Source of the DNA: Terriglobia bacterium
Lineage (GTDB): Bacteria; Acidobacteriota; UBA6911
Assembly: GCA_020072565.1 (NCBI GenBank)
Contig: JAIQGI010000019.1
Span: 124,001-188,000, forward strand
Reading direction: 5' to 3'
DNA: 64,000 nucleotides
The notes under the pieces: generated by a model
Told to the model about the DNA's origin: nothing
Databases searched by the model: none
Seen by the model: only the letters and a program-made list of their open reading frames with translations
Part shown: positions 31,269 to 40,070 of the stretch, one piece after another
How positions within the stretch are numbered: position 1 is the stretch's first letter
How the letters are laid out: each line of letters starts with the position of its first letter
Made by a program: the position numbers and the translations under genes

Positions 31269-34187
31269 TTAGGGGACGGTGGCGGCGCGGACGACGGACT
31301 CTATGGTAATGGCAACCACTGCGGAGCCGTAGTCAAGGTCGATGTTCGCCATGGTGTCGTGGCTGTCGTGGTAGCCGGCGCGGTTGATGTCGTAGTTTTC
31401 CATAAAAAGCACCACCGGGATACCAACGTCGGAGAAAATCTGACCGTCGGTGTTGTAGAGAGTGCTCCTTGAGTCATATGGCAACCGCACCTCTCCGTGA
31501 AGAACGGGATGCTCCGCGATCCTGGGGATCGTGTTGCCGTCGGCGCTGCGGCACCCGCGCCCGCGACCCCTTCTTGAGGCGCGCCGGTTCCACATTCCGG
31601 TGAGGCTGTTCCAGGCTTCATTGGCGCGATGAGCCCGATAGGCAAGGCGGAGCGACTCGGCCCCGGCGCCCGGGGCAATCTGGAAGATATCCCGGGCGTG
31701 GTCGTTGTTGTGGGCGACCATGTCGAGAACATACACGCCCTGTACCTGCACCCGCGACAGATCGCGGCTGCGTCCTCCGGCGAGATGGATCTTCAACGTC
31801 CCTTCGACCAGTTGACGGCATAGCTGCCGCGCACCCATGCAGTCGGAGGGAAACTCCTCCCCGGTAAGGTGAACCAGCCAGACGTCACAGCCCAGGTTGC
31901 CCGCACAGCTCAAGCGGCACAACACCGGCGCAGCCAGCATAAGGGCGGCGGTCGCGGAGTGATTGTCATCGGCCCCGGCAGCCGCGATCCGGGCGCCTGA
32001 ACCACCGCGCGCCTTGTCGTATACGTCCTCCATGTAGGCCGTGTCGTAGTGGTCGGCCATGATTACAGCCCTGCGGCGATCCCGACCCGGAATGACCACC
32101 AGCAGGTTCCGCTCATGTGTGCGCTCCTGCTGGTTGCTGAGCCAACCGCCCGACCAATCAAAATCGAAGTCGGTCTTCCATCGGAACGGGAGCTCTCCCA
32201 CAAGGATTTTCCCTCCCAAACCGCAGGCAGACACCACCTGCGCATAGTGCGCGAGCAAGTAGTCTCCGAGGGCTTCCAGATCGCGGTGATGATGATGGAG
32301 CATCTTGAGCGTGACCGGATCGCGCACGCAGTCGGCGTTGCACTTATTGACAAACGCGCCTGCAGCCAGCTTCCGGATCGTATTCCAATATCTGGTCTCG
32401 AAAGACCTGTTCGCCGTGTAGCCATAGGTTAGTGAATCAACCGGCGCCTTGGGTGCGCTCACAATCGATGGCGACGCTTGCGTTTCGAGCAGTCGGCCGA
32501 TTTCCGCGGCAAGCCGCCGGCCCCTCACTGGCTCGGTTGCACGCACGGAGAGTGATTCCAGCCAGTCATCGAGCGACTCATACTTGCCCAGCGTCAGCAG
32601 CCGGTGCGCAAAGGTGCGGGGCAGAGGATGCATTCCGACCGACGCCGCGACATCAAAAAGCTTGCGCACGTTCTGGGCAGTCTGGTGCGGATGCCGGTCA
32701 TCCGGCGACTGCTCGAAAAGCTGCGACGCAGCCAGGTGATTCTCGCGCTCCAGAAGACGCGGCCAGAGTTCGACCGGACGTTCCTTAGTGAGCCGATCCG
32801 TGCGGTAAGCTGTCAAAAATCCCGGGGGCCAATCCTGGAGCAATACCGGCTCCCCGGTTGCAGGCGACTGGTATGCAACCAACGGGCGATGCCAGTAGAC
32901 CTCATGCAGGCCGACACGCATCGCCGGAAACTGAAACCGGTAGCCGAACATGCCGCCCGCACTCACGACCTGAAAGGCCCGGCGAATCTCCGCGGAAGCG
33001 GCGTGGGGGCCGTCAAGAAGGAGATGGTAGTCGTGCGTCCAGATCTGGGCATTGCGTGCCATCGGCTTGCCGTAGAGTTCTACGTCATCCGGTCGGGCGC
33101 TGAAGAGGACGTGCGCCAGTTTGTCTTCGCGCGCCAGCACGGCAGTTTCGTCTTCGTGGCGGTGCACACGCGCCCAGCGATGAGTCCTGATATAAGTGTT
33201 CCGGAAAGGAGCATGAAGGTCACCGGATTCGGATTGCCCGGATCCCGGTTCGTGGAGCCAGCCCGACTGCGGGATGCGCAATCCCTGCGGACCCTCATGA
33301 CGCGAAACGGAGTGGAGCAACGGTATCTGGAGCGCGAGCGGAAGCTCCCGTTGCAGCTGCAGATATGCGGGCGCTCCCCAAAACAACAAACTGCCGGGGA
33401 AAGGCAACAGGTGAAGCCTGCCTTCGAGATAGGCACCGCGCACGGGGGGCGGCAGCTTGCTGAAGGGCGTAAAGGTCAGCATGTAGTGCACACCGTCCAG
33501 CGACTGTCCGGCAGTCCACAGGTAGGGCGACGTCCAGCTTGGATGCGGGTCATCGCTTGCCGGTGCGTGATCCCCAATCAGAATGCGAAATCCGGCGCGA
33601 TATAACTCACCCGAAGAAGTGAGGGGCGCGCCGTAAACTTCACCGACCAACTTGCAGATGAAACCCAACGCATGTTCTTCCGGCAGTTCGCTTCCCGGCG
33701 AGGTGTAGAATCCTCTCCAGAAAGCCCGGGAGGGCCCCTGTTCACTGCCGCCGAAAAGGGTCCAGCGTACGCGGCCCTTGTCGTCCTGCGACCGCGACAG
33801 CGCCAGCGGCAGGATGATGACGAATCGTTCGTGGGCCAGCGCCCCTGCATGGCGGGCAAGCTCTTCGGGCCAATAGGGATTGTCGAGCAGCTTGATTCTG
33901 GAAATCCCGTGCGCCGGTTCGCCGCGGGCAAGATGCACCAGCACCTTCAGGATCTGCTGAGCCACGGAGTGCAATCCCGGCACGAGTTGGAAGGCTTCTT
34001 CATACTCCGTTACCGGCCAGCCCCAAGGATCCTCCTCGGCGAAAAAACCGCTGTCCCGGCGCGTGTATGGACTGAACCCCAGGCGCGGCGGGGGCATGAA
34101 CTCCGAGTACGCTTCGATCGGAAAGTTACCTTTCCCTGCAAATTTGTCTGCATTGAGAAGTAGTCGTTTCCATCCCTGGATGGGCAT
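31269..34187 (-). CDS. Large protein with a C-terminal M28 zinc peptidase domain
   Basis: 972 residues with no signal peptide or obvious membrane segment. The last 300 residues match M28 aminopeptidases. The ligand set is complete: the His and Asp in ADHYDTAY (about residue 693), GADDNHSATAALM (about 718), the Glu pair in TGEEFPSDCMGA (about 755), the Asp in VLDMVAHNN (about 800) and the His in AGYHDSHDTMANID (about 945). The first 650 residues are not recognised; they contain GWKRLLLNADKF, a DPWGWPVTEYEEAFQLVPG block and many Trp, Tyr and His residues. It lies 83 bases after the small gene at 34271 and is the last gene of the sigma-factor run. GAGG lies upstream of the ATG. Confidence 0.72.
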   Translation of the reverse strand: MPIQGWKRLLLNADKFAGKGNFPIEAYSEFMPPPRLGFSPYTRRDSGFFAEEDPWGWPVTEYEEAFQLVPGLHSVAQQILKVLVHLARGEPAHGISRIKLLDNPYWPEELARHAGALAHERFVIILPLALSRSQDDKGRVRWTLFGGSEQGPSRAFWRGFYTSPGSELPEEHALGFICKLVGEVYGAPLTSSGELYRAGFRILIGDHAPASDDPHPSWTSPYLWTAGQSLDGVHYMLTFTPFSKLPPPVRGAYLEGRLHLLPFPGSLLFWGAPAYLQLQRELPLALQIPLLHSVSRHEGPQGLRIPQSGWLHEPGSGQSESGDLHAPFRNTYIRTHRWARVHRHEDETAVLAREDKLAHVLFSARPDDVELYGKPMARNAQIWTHDYHLLLDGPHAASAEIRRAFQVVSAGGMFGYRFQFPAMRVGLHEVYWHRPLVAYQSPATGEPVLLQDWPPGFLTAYRTDRLTKERPVELWPRLLERENHLAASQLFEQSPDDRHPHQTAQNVRKLFDVAASVGMHPLPRTFAHRLLTLGKYESLDDWLESLSVRATEPVRGRRLAAEIGRLLETQASPSIVSAPKAPVDSLTYGYTANRSFETRYWNTIRKLAAGAFVNKCNADCVRDPVTLKMLHHHHRDLEALGDYLLAHYAQVVSACGLGGKILVGELPFRWKTDFDFDWSGGWLSNQQERTHERNLLVVIPGRDRRRAVIMADHYDTAYMEDVYDKARGGSGARIAAAGADDNHSATAALMLAAPVLCRLSCAGNLGCDVWLVHLTGEEFPSDCMGARQLCRQLVEGTLKIHLAGGRSRDLSRVQVQGVYVLDMVAHNNDHARDIFQIAPGAGAESLRLAYRAHRANEAWNSLTGMWNRRASRRGRGRGCRSADGNTIPRIAEHPVLHGEVRLPYDSRSTLYNTDGQIFSDVGIPVVLFMENYDINRAGYHDSHDTMANIDLDYGSAVVAITIESVVRAATVP

Positions 34188-34270
34188 ACAGGAACCTCAA
34201 AATGAGTGACAAGTCATAGTGATGAGGACCAAACTGGCAGCTGCTGGCATTTGCGGCCACTCATGACTCA

Positions 34271-34501
34271 TCACTGCTGTTTAAGCCGTTCCAGGACGGC
34301 CCGGACGGTTGTGCTCAAACCGGCGGGATTGAGCGCACGCTCGATGAGGCGGCTCTCCAGCTGACGCGCGCACGCAGCCTCCCGGTCTTCTGGCGAGAGG
34401 TCCCACCAGGCCGGCGACGGCAGGATGCGGCCCCAGGCATTGCGTTCCCGGAAAGCGGAGGCAGCCTGCTCGATCAATAGGCCTCCCGGATCGACGGTCA
34501 T
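34271..34501 (-). CDS. Small protein coupled to the ECF sigma factor gene
   Basis: 76 residues beginning MTVDPGGLLIEQ and containing SPAWWDLSPEDREAACARQLE. It is acidic to neutral and probably all-helical, with no Cys/His zinc pair and no membrane segment. The start at 34501 forms an ATGA with the sigma-factor stop, so translation is coupled; a longer frame to 34543 overlaps the sigma gene. I do not recognise the family. The position suggests an anti-sigma or adaptor role, which remains inference. Confidence 0.6.
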   Translation of the reverse strand: MTVDPGGLLIEQAASAFRERNAWGRILPSPAWWDLSPEDREAACARQLESRLIERALNPAGLSTTVRAVLERLKQQ

Positions 34502-35076
34502 GACAGGACCTCCTCGAGGCGCACTCCACGCCTCTCCAGGCAAGCTCGAAGCAGCCTGCGTGCCCGGACGATGTTTTGAAGAAAGGTGTTCACCTTCATG
34601 CGCAGGGTCCGCGCAAGTTCGCGATCCGGAAGGACTCCCTCGCGCACACGAGCCGACAGCGCCTTCTGAGCCTGCCTGGGCAAGCGCCCCATACAGTCCT
34701 GGATAGCGCGGGCCAGGGCAGGATCGGGCGGATCAGGCTCGACACGTCCTTCGGGCAGGCTATCCAGAGAATCCAGGTCGACAAACCGGTCCTGGCGGCA
34801 CCTCCGGATTTCCTCGAAAGCTACATTGCGCGCCACCGCAAAGGCGAACTTGACCGCGGCGTTGGGTCCTTCCAGCAGCCGCTGACGGTCATCGGCCACA
34901 AGCCACATGCGCACGAACGTCTCCTGGAGCACGACTTCCACGTCGGCAGCGCGGGCATAGCGCTGCAGGCTGCGGCGTAAGGGGATTTCTACCATCCCCA
35001 TCCACTCCGCAAAGGCCTCCCGATCCCCCGACCGGGCACGTCGAAACGCCTCGTCTGCACGCTCCATATTCGTCAT
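34498..35076 (-). CDS. Sigma-70 family (ECF-type) RNA polymerase sigma factor
   Basis: 192 residues. Region 2 (residues about 10-75) includes DVEVVLQETFVRMW and FAFAVARNVAFEEIRRCR, which contact core polymerase and the -10 element. Region 4 (about 115-175) reads MGRLPRQAQKALSARVREGV, then LPDRELARTLRMKVNTFLQNIVRARRLL, a helix-turn-helix for the -35 element. An acidic linker with two Asp/Glu/Pro runs separates them. AAGGGGA precedes the ATG at 35076; a TTG one codon earlier is possible. It begins 36 bases after the VIT/vWA gene ends and overlaps the 76-residue gene. Confidence 0.85.
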   Translation of the reverse strand: MTNMERADEAFRRARSGDREAFAEWMGMVEIPLRRSLQRYARAADVEVVLQETFVRMWLVADDRQRLLEGPNAAVKFAFAVARNVAFEEIRRCRQDRFVDLDSLDSLPEGRVEPDPPDPALARAIQDCMGRLPRQAQKALSARVREGVLPDRELARTLRMKVNTFLQNIVRARRLLRACLERRGVRLEEVLS

Positions 35077-35112
35077 CAAGTAATCCCCTTAAGAGCAGTC
35101 TGCGCGCTTGAC

Positions 35113-37512
35113 TTACGGCCCGAGCATGATGTGCAAATTGACCTCTCCGGCTCCGGGCTCGGTCCAAGTGAGCTGCGCCTCGCCGTGAAGCCAGCTGTAC
35201 TGATCCTCAAGCTTCAGAGCCATGCGGACCGTGAGCCCCAAATGATGCGGTCCCGGCGGGCTGCTTTCCTGGCCGACCAGCGTTGCGTCACGGACCGTAC
35301 CGTCGCCGAAGGATACACGCACCATGGCGCCGTCATCCGGAAGCAGGAATCCCGCTGTGGGCACTTCGAACTCGAAAATCAGGATCGGACCGTCTACCCG
35401 CAAGACGCGTGCCTCGAATATTTCCAGCAGGGCGGGCTCACCCTTTCCTTCGGGTAGATAGCGCTCCACATCCTCCCATTGCTGGCTGGGAGCGAGTTCG
35501 TGACTTTCATCCTTCTCCTCACGATCCTCCGTACCATAGCCAAAGGCTTTTTCGAAGAGCCCCAAACTCGGCATTGCCCTGTATATCCTTGGCACTGCCG
35601 GCGGGGCATATGCGGCCGCCCTGATCGACGGCAACAACCCGACTCCTTCGGCCGAAACCTCGGCTGGGACTTCCACGGCTAACCGCTCGCGGCGGCGCGG
35701 GTCCTTGGGATCGACCGTCGGGTCCTCGGAAATCGCAATCAGGCTTGTCTTCCGGCTGGCGATGCCGTGGCGCAGCCCGAGAGCCTCGATCCTCGCTTCA
35801 AACGCCGCGGCTTCCCGGCCTTTGACAGCTGCCAGCTGCAGTTCGAGATCCTCGATTGCCTCCCGCCCGTACAATGCGCCAAGTGGGAGAACGGTCTGAT
35901 TTAACGCACTGGGGATCATGTCAGCAGTCAGCTCTGCCTCTTTGACCCCGGGAATTTCAACTCGGCGGGTCCAGGACCCCGAATGGTCCATTAGCCTCCC
36001 CTGGATCTCCAAACTTCCGCCGGCAATAGAGATCTCGGCCAGAAGCACCTGAGGCTGCCCCTCCAGGACATCTTGTGGTCGTGCGGGCGCCAACGCGACC
36101 AGGGCCGATCCTTTCACTTCCAGGTCGGTCAGTACCGGCCGGACCGTGGCCTGCAGGAGGCGGCGCGAGGCGGCGCGGGCGTCGTCGTCATCTCCAACCA
36201 GAATCTCGACACCTCTGCCGGCACGGGCGGCGCCGCGGGTGAGGGTCCGGTTGGGTGCGGCCCCGATGCCGACGGCATGAAGCCGGGCGCCTGGAACCAG
36301 CCGGCGCAGCACTTCGCCGATCACCTCGCCCTCAAACCCGATATATCCATCGGAGAGGAGGATAACCTGCCGCTGCGAGTCGCGCCGCAGCGGCGCCAGC
36401 GCTGCAATAATGGCCTGGGCCATCTCCGTCGCCCCCCCGGCCTCGAGCCTGCCGAGCAAATCCAGGGCGCGCCGGATGTTTTTGTCGTTTGCCTCCACCG
36501 GGTGGGGAACGAGACGCTCGACGCCGCCGGCGAATGCCAGGATTTCGAACCGGTCGCCGGGGTCGAGGCTGCGCAGCAGTTCTTCCGCCACAATCTTCGC
36601 CCGGTCGAGGGGACGTCCCGACATCGAGCCGCTGGCATCGATGAGGAGGGTCAGGTCGCGGGAGAAGCCTTTGGGAACGGCCGCAGGAGGTGTCAGAGTG
36701 AGCAGAATGTAGCGGCCGTCGTCGCAGGGAAGCCCTCTTCCTTCCACGAAGCGCACGCCAACCTCCTGTTGGGTGGCGCACCAGCGGATCACCAGATCAC
36801 GGTCGAGCTTCATTTCGTCCCGCAAGGCAATACGAACGCCGCCCTGGTGGTCTTCGAGATCGATTACCTGACCGGGTGCGTGAGGATGGAGCAAAGCGGC
36901 AGAACCATCCGCTACGAAGAGGCTTGCCACCAGCCGTACCGGCGTGCCCTCGCCGGCAGCGCGGTCGACATCAAGATTAGCAGCATCGGGAACCCGGCCC
37001 GGAGCACCTTCGTAGCGCACGTCGGGAACCGTTGGGAACCGGTACTCCCACCGTGCCGGCATTTCCCCGACGGCAGGCAGAAACACCAGTGGCTGCAGCA
37101 CCTCGATCTCCACCTCCGCTGTTTCCCCCGGCGGGAGGCAGCCGAGCTTCTGCGTGAAGGTGTCGGCGCGCTCCTGCTCAAGCAGGGCGGCGGTCCGCCC
37201 ATCGAGCAGGGCCTTGCGGTATGCCTCCTGCGCCTCCGCGCGCCGCTTTACTTCGCCCCGGATCATCCGCTTCCCGAGGCGGATCGTATAGCCGATCACG
37301 GCGCCGTTCGCCGGCAGCGGCAGCGTGTAGAGCACCTCCAGCGGCTCATGGTAGGGATTGTCGTAAGTCTGGGCGAAGGTTGTGGCCGCGACGCCCCCCT
37401 CCGCGCGCGCTTCAGCCCGTGCGGATTTCAAGGGATATGTGCGGCCATCCACGGAAACCAGTCCAGCGGTGCGGGTCATATAAGTGCCGGTCACTGCGCT
37501 TGCATTTGCCAT
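35113..37512 (-). CDS. VIT- and vWA-domain protein (inter-alpha-trypsin inhibitor-like)
   Basis: 799 residues, no signal peptide. A VIT domain occupies about residues 15-130 (FAQTYDNPYHEPLEVLYTLPLPANGAVIGYTIRLG, then RAEAQEAYRKAL). A von Willebrand type A domain follows at about 285-450 with the metal-adhesion motif DASGSMSGRPL near residue 295 and later LSDGYIGFEGEV. A third beta-rich region of about 120 residues ends the protein. VIT/vWA proteins bind or sense partner proteins through divalent metal. The RBS AGGAGG is best spaced from the ATG at 37512; an ATG at 37518 abuts it. It is the first gene of the run with the sigma factor. Confidence 0.86.
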   Translation of the reverse strand: MANASAVTGTYMTRTAGLVSVDGRTYPLKSARAEARAEGGVAATTFAQTYDNPYHEPLEVLYTLPLPANGAVIGYTIRLGKRMIRGEVKRRAEAQEAYRKALLDGRTAALLEQERADTFTQKLGCLPPGETAEVEIEVLQPLVFLPAVGEMPARWEYRFPTVPDVRYEGAPGRVPDAANLDVDRAAGEGTPVRLVASLFVADGSAALLHPHAPGQVIDLEDHQGGVRIALRDEMKLDRDLVIRWCATQQEVGVRFVEGRGLPCDDGRYILLTLTPPAAVPKGFSRDLTLLIDASGSMSGRPLDRAKIVAEELLRSLDPGDRFEILAFAGGVERLVPHPVEANDKNIRRALDLLGRLEAGGATEMAQAIIAALAPLRRDSQRQVILLSDGYIGFEGEVIGEVLRRLVPGARLHAVGIGAAPNRTLTRGAARAGRGVEILVGDDDDARAASRRLLQATVRPVLTDLEVKGSALVALAPARPQDVLEGQPQVLLAEISIAGGSLEIQGRLMDHSGSWTRRVEIPGVKEAELTADMIPSALNQTVLPLGALYGREAIEDLELQLAAVKGREAAAFEARIEALGLRHGIASRKTSLIAISEDPTVDPKDPRRRERLAVEVPAEVSAEGVGLLPSIRAAAYAPPAVPRIYRAMPSLGLFEKAFGYGTEDREEKDESHELAPSQQWEDVERYLPEGKGEPALLEIFEARVLRVDGPILIFEFEVPTAGFLLPDDGAMVRVSFGDGTVRDATLVGQESSPPGPHHLGLTVRMALKLEDQYSWLHGEAQLTWTEPGAGEVNLHIMLGP

Positions 37513-37940
37513 ATCCATCCTCCTGTTACCTGGATATGACCCGGAAGGAGCTTTTGGTGACAAAGATTCCACTGCCGGCTCAAAATAAAAGGACGTCCGG
37601 CAAACCATTACTACCATGGATTTGAACAAGGCCACCGAGGAAATTGTCGCCTGCGGCGTGGGCACATCCGAAAAGTCTCCACGCTGAGATCGCGGAGACT
37701 GCGGAACATTGATGGGTCTTGAACCCTGATTTGTCGATCTCTGCAAGCAAAGCTGCTGAACCACCAAATACGCCAAGCGCATGAAAGAGGTGTTCGTATA
37801 TTTCGTGGTTGTTGATTTGGCTGTGGCTGCTTTTTTTCAGCGCGGTTCTTGGCGTCTTGGCGGTCGTGTTTATAGGCGTTGATCTGGGTCGATCCGGGGC
37901 TTTAGAATGATCCCCATATCTTAAGAGGAGGGAGCCCGCG
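37513..37940. other. Divergent intergenic region, VIT/vWA versus M3 peptidase
   Basis: 428 bases with no supported gene. It holds a copy of the dispersed palindromic repeat (37759-37830) and a GGCGTCTTGGCGG stretch just after it, common in such repeats. Promoters for the two flanking genes should lie here but none is clear by eye. Confidence 0.5.
37759..37830. repeat. Dispersed palindromic repeat, copy 1
   Basis: AACCACCAAATACGCCAA at the left and GTATATTTCGTGGTTG at the right pair as an inverted repeat around a loop, followed by TGATTTGGCTGTGGCTGC. The copy at 41273-41352 has the same layout with AACCACGAAATACGCGAA, then GTATTTCGTGGTTG, then TGATACGGCTGCGGCTCC. Two copies within 4 kb, both in intergenic DNA, point to a REP- or MITE-like family. 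The extension TTCTTGGCGTCTTGGCGG (37845-37862) is a common companion. Confidence 0.65.
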
Positions 37941-40070
37941 ATGTACTATCATTTGAGGTGCATTATTGTGTTGATGGCAATGATGAACTGCGTTACGTTC
38001 GGTGCGGCTGATCAAAATATAGCTGCCGACAAGAACAATCCGTTTTTCGCACCTTACACCACTCCCCTCAACACCCCGCCGTTCAACCTGATCAAGAACG
38101 AGCACTTCCTGCCGGCCATCAAGGAAGGCATCCGGCGGCAGCAGGCCGAAATCGATGCCATCGTCAACAATCCGGCCGCTCCTGCGTTTGCCAACACCCT
38201 GGGAGCGTTTGATGCCAGTGGGCAGCTCCTGTCTGAAGTAAACGCGGTTTTCAGCGCGATGCAGGGCGCAGACACTACGCCTGAGATCCAGAACATCGCA
38301 AAAGAGGTTGCGCCGCTTGCGGCGGCCCACAGCGACAACATCCGGTTGAACGAAAAACTCTTCGCACGGGTGAAGGCTGTTTACGATCAGCGAGCCAGGC
38401 TGAAGCTCACCCCGGAGGAGCAGTTTCTGCTTGAAAACACCTACCGCGACTTTGTGCGCGGGGGCGCGCTGCTGAACGAAAAACAGAAAGCCCGGCTCCG
38501 TGAACTGAACCAGCAGCTGGCGATGCTGTCGCTCAAGTTCGGCGACAACCTGCTGGCCGAGACCAACGACATCAAGCTGGTCCTCGAAAGCAGCAATGAC
38601 CTGGCTGGTCTGCCTCCCTCGGTCCGGGCGATGGCCGAGGAAACGGCCCGCCAGCAGAAGATGCCCGGCAAGTGGGTCTTCACGGTGCAGGTGCCGAGCA
38701 TGACCCCCTTCCTCCAGTATTCGACAAGGCGCGATCTGCGTGAAAAGTTGTATCGCGGTTACATCATGCGCGGCGACCGCGGCAACGAGCGCGACAACAA
38801 GGACATCGTCCGCCAGATCGTCAACCTGCGCAGCGAGAAGGCGAAGCTGCTCGGATATCCCACTCATGCCGCGTTCGTCGTGGAAACCAACATGGCCAGG
38901 ACACCCAAGGCCGTGGATGACTTCCTCATGAGACTGTGGACCCCGGCGATAGCGCGTTCCAAGAGTGAGGTGGCCGATATGCAGGCCATCATTGACCGCG
39001 AAGGCGGCAAATTCAAGCTCGCCCCGTGGGACTGGTGGTATTACGCCGAGAAGGTGCGCCAGGAAAAGTACGCACTGGACGATGCCGCCCTGCGCCCCTA
39101 TTTTAAACTCGAGAATGTGCGCCAGGGCATCTTCACGCTGTGCGAGAAACTTTACGGCCTCAAGTTCACCGAACGGAGCGACATTCCTGTTTACAATCCG
39201 GAAGTCCAGGTGTTCGAGGTGCGCGAAGCCGGCGGCAGTTACGTGGGGGTTTTGTACATGGATTTCCACCCCCGTCCGGGCAAACGCGGCGGCGCCTGGT
39301 CAAGTGCGTTCCGGCGGGAATACTACGACAAGGGCAAGCGTGTGGCGCCCCTCTCCACCATTACCTGCAATTTCACGCGCCCTACGGCCAACGCTCCCTC
39401 GCTGCTCAGCGTGGACGAGGCGAAGACCTTCGCCCACGAATTCGGGCATACGCTGGCGACTCTGCTCTCGGACTGCACGTTCCGCGGCCGCACAGTACCA
39501 CGAGATGCGGTCGAGCTCCCCTCACAGATCATGGAGAACTGGATGCTGGAGCCGGAGTTGCTCACCACCTATGCCAGGCATTACCAGACCGGCGCCGTCA
39601 TTCCGGCCGAACTCGTCAAGAACCTCGAGAACAGCAGCCTCTTCAACCAGGGCTTCGAGACTGTGGAATACCTTGCGGCTTCGCTTCTCGATATGAAATG
39701 GCACGAGCTGGCCGCGCCTCAGCCCGACGTGGATGTAGACAAATTTGAAACCCAGGCCATGACCGGCATCGGCCTCATCCCTGAGATTACGCCCCGCTAC
39801 CGGAGCACGTATTTCAACCACATCTTCAACGGCGGCTATTCGGCCGGATATTACGTTTACATCTGGGCCGCGCAGCTGGATGCCGACGCCTTCGAAGCCT
39901 TCAGGGAGAAGGGTCTGTTCGATAAGGCGACAGCGACCGCATTCCGCAAAAGCGTGCTCGAAAAGTACGGCGCCCTCGATCTCATGACTCAGTACAAGGC
40001 GTTCCGCGGCGCCGAGCCCAAGATCGAACCGCTGCTGAAACGCCGCGGCCTGCTGGATATCAAGAAGTAG
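37941..40070 (+). CDS. M3-family oligopeptidase (peptidyl-dipeptidase Dcp-like), exported
   Basis: 709 residues with an N-terminal signal-like stretch (IIVLMAMMNCVTFGAA). The catalytic zinc motif FAHEFGHTLATL lies near residue 497, with the downstream Glu in NWMLEPELL near residue 531. The fold blocks WDWWYYAEKVRQEKYALDDAALRPYF near residue 360 and GYSAGYYVYIWAAQLDADAF near residue 632 are typical of M3 Dcp/OpdA enzymes. It should cleave dipeptides from C termini of oligopeptides, in the periplasm. GAGGAGGGAGC precedes the ATG. Confidence 0.93.
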   Translation: MYYHLRCIIVLMAMMNCVTFGAADQNIAADKNNPFFAPYTTPLNTPPFNLIKNEHFLPAIKEGIRRQQAEIDAIVNNPAAPAFANTLGAFDASGQLLSEVNAVFSAMQGADTTPEIQNIAKEVAPLAAAHSDNIRLNEKLFARVKAVYDQRARLKLTPEEQFLLENTYRDFVRGGALLNEKQKARLRELNQQLAMLSLKFGDNLLAETNDIKLVLESSNDLAGLPPSVRAMAEETARQQKMPGKWVFTVQVPSMTPFLQYSTRRDLREKLYRGYIMRGDRGNERDNKDIVRQIVNLRSEKAKLLGYPTHAAFVVETNMARTPKAVDDFLMRLWTPAIARSKSEVADMQAIIDREGGKFKLAPWDWWYYAEKVRQEKYALDDAALRPYFKLENVRQGIFTLCEKLYGLKFTERSDIPVYNPEVQVFEVREAGGSYVGVLYMDFHPRPGKRGGAWSSAFRREYYDKGKRVAPLSTITCNFTRPTANAPSLLSVDEAKTFAHEFGHTLATLLSDCTFRGRTVPRDAVELPSQIMENWMLEPELLTTYARHYQTGAVIPAELVKNLENSSLFNQGFETVEYLAASLLDMKWHELAAPQPDVDVDKFETQAMTGIGLIPEITPRYRSTYFNHIFNGGYSAGYYVYIWAAQLDADAFEAFREKGLFDKATATAFRKSVLEKYGALDLMTQYKAFRGAEPKIEPLLKRRGLLDIKK

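What the first reader, a model, noticed from the sequence alone, without database searches (positions are those of the whole stretch)
31269..37512. VIT/vWA - ECF sigma - small protein - M28 protease operon
Seen: four minus-strand genes with gaps of 36 bases, an ATGA overlap and 83 bases. The combination of a metal-dependent adhesion/vWA protein, a sigma factor, an unknown 76-residue protein coupled to it, and a large protein with a protease domain is not a standard ECF locus, which usually has a membrane anti-sigma factor. Inference: a signalling system in which the vWA protein or the protease replaces the usual membrane sensor, and the small protein acts as anti-sigma.
Basis: partly seen in the sequence, partly recalled or inferred. 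Interest (0 to 1): 0.7.

Follow-up and report, generated by a model that had tools for sequence, protein, structure and literature searches.

The report
Self-regulating VIT/vWA–sigma–small-protein gene trio
Three of the four genes form a compact switch that recurs in several bacterial phyla, in which a sigma factor appears to turn on mainly its own operon, made of a von Willebrand-type protein, the sigma factor and a tiny protein that may restrain it; the neighbouring protease is not part of it.

Summary
VIT/vWA, ECF sigma and ~75-aa protein recur in that order across loci from Acidobacteriota, Myxococcota, Eisenbacteria, Planctomycetota and Gemmatimonadota. In a search made with the small protein alone, 29 of 29 Myxococcota hits had the sigma gene directly upstream, and 28 of 29 the VIT/vWA gene by profile. 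No other neighbour is shared across the lineages. The M28 protease lies elsewhere in the sister genome.

Upstream of the VIT/vWA start is a sigma-type promoter: TGTCAC, 16-17 bases, then RTCATA, GACWTR or CGTTG (window 37562-37535). A pattern fixed on the first 15 loci was met by 20 of 24 held-out loci (shuffles 0.1). In the window's genome the exact form occurs once, at this operon; in the sister genome twice, at its two trios. So the sigma factor probably drives mainly its own operon.

The small protein is soluble, helical, without the zinc anti-sigma motif and without a convincing known fold; anti-sigma is the best guess, untested. The VIT/vWA protein is cytosolic, or tail-anchored in 16 of 58 loci. 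Binding, signal and output remain unknown.

The parts
37535..37562 (-). predicted ECF promoter of the operon: TGTCAC (37562-37557), 16 bases, GTCATA (37540-37535)
   Evidence: conserved box upstream of all 17 first-set operons, held-out test 20 of 24, only exact match in genome G000
35113..37512 (-). VIT/vWA protein, 799 aa: VIT, beta sandwich, vWA with DASGS metal-site motif (292-296), helical hairpin, disordered linker ~628-692, C-terminal beta domain ~696-796; no signal peptide or TM
34498..35079 (-). ECF sigma factor (sigma2 and sigma4, no C-terminal extension); family motif NTFLQN(I/V)xRAR in region 4
34271..34501 (-). 76-aa soluble helical protein, putative anti-sigma (or sigma cofactor), ATGA overlap with sigma
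   Evidence: sigma adjacent in 29 of 29 Myxococcota hits found with the small protein alone
31269..34187 (-). 972-aa protein with C-terminal M28 peptidase domain; downstream neighbour, NOT part of the conserved unit

Best explanation
The unit is a three-gene, autoregulated ECF sigma module. Shown by sequence: VIT/vWA, sigma and small protein are inherited together in fixed order across phyla, and the operon starts with a promoter-like element that is conserved along with this sigma family and is nearly unique in each genome examined. Inferred: the sigma factor recognises that element and drives mainly its own operon, so the regulated product is the VIT/vWA protein itself. [quoted passage not shown] Inferred, weaker: the cytosolic or tail-anchored VIT/vWA protein, through its metal-dependent vWA face or its C-terminal domain, senses a ligand or partner and shifts sigma between the small protein and RNA polymerase. 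The M28 protease is an unrelated neighbour.
For: Order: all 11 small-protein loci at E<1e-13 in 10 of 396 genomes of the own phylum carry sigma or its remnant directly upstream and VIT/vWA (some cut by contig ends). A sigma-seeded scan gave 21 close relatives, 21 of 21 with the small gene downstream and 19 of 21 with VIT/vWA by profile; 8 distant ECFs had neither. Search with the small protein alone: Myxococcota 29 of 377 genomes, sigma adjacent 29 of 29, VIT/vWA 28 of 29. The only other neighbour shared by more than two loci is one family at scattered positions in 3. Promoter: TGTCAC in 13 of 15 non-redundant upstream regions (shuffles 0.66, max 3); held out 20 of 24 for the fixed bipartite pattern (0.095, max 2). 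Near-unique target: TGTCAC-N16-RTCATA once in G000 and twice in G001, at their trios; 26 of 27 one-mismatch sites inspected lie inside ORFs. Close precedent: ECF41 factors use TGTCACA-n16-CGTC and detectably drive only their neighbouring gene (PMC3426412, passages). Small protein: AF2 pLDDT 87.2, no TM, no HxxxCxxC in 21 of 21.
Against: No binding, transcription or knock-out data. Sigma scores below every curated cut-off, although its region 2 and 4 motifs are conserved in 10 of 10. The small protein matches no anti-sigma family, so that role rests on position, coupling and solubility. Co-inheritance (Mantel r 0.60-0.72) does not show contact. The strict pattern could miss divergent targets: one-mismatch sites are about twice the reversed-pattern control (32 against 15 in G000), and some other genomes have one or two further exact sites. 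3 of 24 held-out operons lack the box where sought and a fourth (L221) has it with a changed -10.
Confidence: 0.6

Rival explanations
1. Same autoregulated trio, but the small protein is a positive partner of sigma (activator, stabiliser or RNA polymerase adaptor), not an anti-sigma factor; activity is set by transcription or by the VIT/vWA protein.
For: The small protein matches no known anti-sigma family and lacks the ZAS motif; it stays intact in two loci where sigma is truncated (L037, L217).
Against: Soluble anti-sigma factors are commonly encoded directly downstream of their sigma factor (recalled); loci that lost sigma but kept the small gene would not need an activator.
Confidence: 0.22
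2. The VIT/vWA protein is only the effector (for example a scaffold on membrane or cytosolic partners) and takes no part in sensing; sigma and small protein are its private expression switch.
For: It is the first gene after the promoter and the main detectable target; its C-terminus varies between a soluble beta domain and a membrane tail while sigma and small protein stay constant.
Against: The strict one-to-one linkage suggests more than expression control; ECF modules usually encode their sensor nearby (recalled).
Confidence: 0.35
3. One reading: a four-gene pathway in which the M28 protease or a membrane/surface vWA protein is the sensor and releases sigma by proteolysis.
For: Four co-directional genes in the window.
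Against: Protease relatives in only 3 of 40 genomes searched (own genome included), in G001 on a separate contig away from both trios; no protease relative at the other trio loci examined; no signal peptide on the VIT/vWA protein.
Confidence: 0.03

Closest known systems
ECF41 sigma factors (Wecke et al. 2012, PMC3426412, passages read)
   Same: -35 element TGTCAC, ~16-base spacer, CGT-type -10 in many members; detectable target confined to the sigma factor's own locus
   Different: ECF41 factors carry a C-terminal regulatory extension and sit beside carboxymuconolactone decarboxylase, oxidoreductase or epimerase genes; here there is no extension, a separate small protein and a VIT/vWA gene
[quoted passage not shown] NepR; class II CnrY), reviewed in PMC8999054 (two sections read, one in part) and PMC7406223 (passages)
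   Same: ECF sigma with a small soluble protein encoded next to it
   Different: no zinc motif; no Pfam match to any anti-sigma family; a VIT/vWA gene in the operon; no two-component system among shared neighbours
ITIH heavy chains / PARP4 VIT-vWA proteins
   Same: VIT, beta sandwich and vWA, then further strands and helices (PARP4 sequence 1.1e-45; ITIH1 6fpy Foldseek 1.6e-31)
   Different: bacterial, cytosolic or tail-anchored, own C-terminal domain, encoded with a sigma factor
ArnB / ArnAB of Sulfolobus (vWA regulator; role recalled)
   Same: vWA plus beta-sandwich protein of similar fold (8s05, Foldseek 1.5e-12; VIA Z 21.5, rmsd 8.1 over 323 residues)
   Different: works with an FHA protein in archaea (recalled), no sigma factor

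Membership tests
ECF sigma factor | sigma2 and sigma4 only, ~190 aa | tested here: met
   193 aa; NCBIfam sigma70-ECF 2.9e-6 and TIGR02989 5.4e-17, both below cut-off; among 10 members Pfam region 2 in 7 and region 4 in 5 at E<=0.01; conserved DxExxxQE and region-4 motif
ECF sigma factor | own promoter of two-box type upstream of its operon | tested here: met
   activity itself not testable here
canonical ECF/anti-sigma pair | membrane-bound anti-sigma factor encoded beside sigma | tested here: not met
   small proteins at 26 loci have maximum 19-residue hydropathy below 1; no other shared neighbour
ZAS zinc anti-sigma factor | HxxxCxxC motif | tested here: not met
   0 of 21 small proteins
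anti-sigma factor (any class) | binds and inhibits the cognate sigma | not testable with these tools
   complex prediction and binding not available
ECF41 | C-terminal regulatory extension after sigma4 | tested here: not met
   region 4 match ends at residue 177 of 193; most members 183-199 aa
ECF41 | promoter TGTCACA-n16-CGTC and own locus as sole target | tested here: inconclusive
   same -35, related -10 (CGTTG in many Myxococcota and Planctomycetota members; GTCATA in the window); own operon the only exact site in G000; transcription not tested
marine proteobacterial sortase target protein TIGR03788 | reaches the equivalog cut-off and is exported | tested here: not met
   299.2 bits against cut-off 551.65; no N-terminal hydrophobic segment
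VIT/vWA protein (ITIH/PARP4-like) | VIT plus vWA with intact metal-site motif | tested here: met
   Pfam VIT and VWA; D292, S294, S296, T362 and D388 invariant in 16 of 16; fold match
FF domain (small protein) | FF fold | tested here: inconclusive
   weak profile hits to TCERG1 FF domains, best E 0.0043; VIA Z 2.5, rmsd 6.8; Foldseek best E 1.4 to an unrelated chain

The most novel reading that the evidence does not exclude
A new class of bacterial signalling module: a VIT/vWA protein (cytosolic or tail-anchored) acts as metal- or ligand-dependent sensor that captures or releases a previously undescribed ~75-aa helical anti-sigma protein from an ECF sigma factor, whose regulon is essentially its own operon, giving a self-limiting or bistable switch spread across at least five phyla.
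Probability: 0.35. Interest if true: 0.85.

Novelty: new variant of a known kind. Interest (0 to 1): 0.7.

Why it matters
ECF sigma factors are a main route of bacterial signalling, and many groups lack a known regulator. This trio supplies an unnamed small protein family that accompanies one sigma family nearly without exception, a clear promoter to test it with, and a bacterial setting for the VIT/vWA fold known from human ITIH and PARP4, whose cytosolic role in bacteria is obscure. A regulon that seems confined to one operon makes a clean system in which sensor, switch and output can be assayed together.

Tried and rejected
Four-gene operon rejected: protease not conserved with the trio. 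VIT/vWA scan of genome contigs gave no relative; the sigma alignment worked. FF-domain lead for the small protein not borne out by fold. Wider regulon: one-mismatch sites exceed the reversed control about twofold, but 26 of the 27 inspected (of 50 listed, three of them exact) lie inside ORFs; the one outside is L159; a strict match in G005 is inside an ORF. The first -10 patterns were set after seeing the sequences, so only one search is a held-out test; there 3 of 27 fetched regions were dropped (L220, L233 start not reached, L245 no vWA found). Weak small-protein hits (E 0.001-0.01) in 10 further genomes were dropped as chance. L218 is a 27-residue match without sigma and was dropped. L087/L215 show no VIT/vWA in the 477 bases before sigma. 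The three strong VIT/vWA paralogues examined in the own genome (L038-L040) have no sigma or small relative beside them. Literature: searches gave no paper on this combination; the library holds open-licence papers only, and the 2021 ECF reclassification (recalled) is not held, so a numbered ECF group may already contain these sigma factors. Review PMC8999054 (section 2 and sections 3-3.4 read) names conserved partners of orphan ECF groups but no vWA; PMC8103513 and PMC7406223 were searched for Willebrand/VWA without a hit.

Full report
Observation. The four ORFs, gaps and the ATGA overlap are as described. Pfam confirms VIT and vWA, M28 (residues 694-829 of 972) and weak sigma regions; the 76-aa protein has no family. 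The window lies in G000:C19. The same-genus genome G001 has contigs whose lengths (11475, 15857) equal those of named records of an Acidobacteria MAG, CTSoil_012, found, so the host is an acidobacterium.

Which genes belong together. With VIT/vWA as query, G001 has two trios (C162 and C384) and G005 one. A profile of four small proteins against 396 genomes of the phylum gave 11 loci in 10 genomes at E<1e-13; ten weaker genomes (E 0.001-0.01) were set aside. All 11 carry sigma directly upstream (in G005 only its region 4, fused to a shortened vWA) and VIT/vWA, in some cut by contig ends. A sigma-seeded scan of genome contigs gave 29 loci: 21 close relatives with the small gene downstream in 21 of 21 and VIT/vWA by profile in 19 of 21, and 8 distant ECFs with neither. 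Of the two misses, L100 has a vWA-type C-terminal ORF upstream (L180, with the same C-terminal sequence, matches the later profile), and L087 has only 477 bases upstream, with nothing recognisable. Record titles name Acidobacteria, Myxococcota, Eisenbacteria, Gemmatimonadales and Planctomycetota. Six of the 21 repeat loci already held.

Synteny found with the small protein alone. Searching with the small profile: Myxococcota 29 of 377 genomes, Planctomycetota 7 of 392, Gemmatimonadota 1 of 346, Eisenbacteria 6 of 47 including one 27-residue fragment (phylum inferred from the title of the centre locus). Some of these genomes had also supplied seed sequences (for example G396, G398, G399, G400, G402-G405). 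In the 29 Myxococcota loci sigma is adjacent in 29 and VIT/vWA in 28 by profile; the remaining one, L197, has an upstream ORF cut by the contig start that ends in a transmembrane segment. Of the other 14 loci, 11 are full trios, L215 lacks a visible vWA (same C-terminal ORF and gap as L087), L217 has lost nearly all of vWA and sigma, and L218 is the fragment.

What does not belong. Comparing ORFs of 110 aa or more around 26 loci, no family outside the trio is shared by more than three loci, and pairs are mostly close relatives. The protease has relatives in 3 of 40 genomes searched, own included; in G001 it is on contig C320, away from both trios and without TGTCA in the 400 bases upstream.

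Promoter. Upstream of the VIT/vWA start a TGTCAC-like box stands 50-126 bases before the start codon in 17 of 17 first-set loci (starts chosen by RBS and homology). In 15 non-redundant regions TGTCAC is the commonest 6-mer (13 of 15; in shuffles this word averages 0.66, maximum 3; the best of any word in 50 shuffles was 11). A second box follows 16-17 bases later: GTCATA or ATCATA in the window's genus, GACAT-like in others, CGTTG in the rest (CGTGA in L097). The bipartite pattern written from these was then applied unchanged to 24 new loci, mostly Myxococcota: 20 of 24 match, shuffles 0.095, maximum 2; one more (L221) has the first box with CATTG instead of CGTTG.

Targets. TGTCAC-N16-RTCATA occurs exactly once in G000 (this operon) and twice in G001 (its two trios); the single G005 match is inside an ORF. 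With one mismatch there are 32 sites in G000 and 18 in G001 against 15 and 7 for the reversed control, exact sites included; of 27 inspected, 26 lie inside ORFs. In five genomes with the CGTTG form, only the operon site has the TGTCAY variant; in two close Myxococcales the operon itself has CGTCAC among 10 and 4 matches; the other matches start with CGTCA and look like background, though above the reversed control. For the GACWTR form, three of six genomes have one site and the others two, two and three. So the sigma factor seems devoted mainly to its own operon, as reported for ECF41, whose -35 is also TGTCACA (PMC3426412, passages).

Proteins. VIT/vWA: AF2 mean pLDDT 78.7; nearest are PARP4 by sequence and ITIH1 by fold. 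Its vWA metal-site residues are invariant in 16 of 16. No signal peptide is seen. In 58 rows examined (including at least four duplicate pairs) the ORF before sigma ends in a hydrophobic segment in 16 and not in 42, the window among the latter; for a few rows (for example L084, L087, L090, L183, L189, L215) the ORF picked is doubtful. Small protein: pLDDT 87.2, helices 5-14, 30-34, 37-57, 64-75; no Foldseek match at E<=0.001; no ZAS motif in 21 of 21. Trio distances correlate (r 0.60, 0.72, 0.68; 16 loci), which shows joint inheritance only.

Mechanism. The best reading is an autoregulated ECF module with a soluble anti-sigma candidate and a VIT/vWA product that may also be the sensor. The trio and the promoter element are shown by sequence; sigma acting on that promoter is strongly inferred; anti-sigma is plausible (about 0.55); sensing by VIT/vWA is open (about 0.4).

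Literature. Searches found no description of this combination; the main ECF reclassification paper is not in the library, so novelty of the sigma group as such cannot be claimed.

Noticed in passing
L037 1-1975 (G005) and L217 200-1800 (G1516): Two loci keep the small gene while sigma is truncated: in L037 the vWA ORF is fused in frame to sigma region 4, in L217 the start of vWA stands next to the end of sigma. Real deletions or assembly collapses.
   Followed up: partly
L089, L099, L181, L190, L193, L196, L197, L200, L201, L204, L205, L207-L211: In these trios the VIT/vWA protein ends in a transmembrane tail instead of the soluble beta domain (Planctomycetota and some Myxococcota).
   Followed up: partly
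window 31269-34187: The M28 protein has roughly 690 N-terminal residues without any Pfam match; 52-55% identical relatives in G001 and G016.
   Followed up: no
window 37941-40070 and L035 7994-10327: An M3 family peptidase gene stands divergent from the trio in both genomes of the genus, so this edge of the locus looks orthologous.
   Followed up: no
L035 and L036 (G001): One genome carries two trios with nearly the same promoter, raising the question of cross-talk or insulation.
   Followed up: no
L219-L244 upstream regions: Beyond the -10 CGTTG box many promoters share a GAA or GAC about 10 bases further on, perhaps near the transcription start.
   Followed up: no
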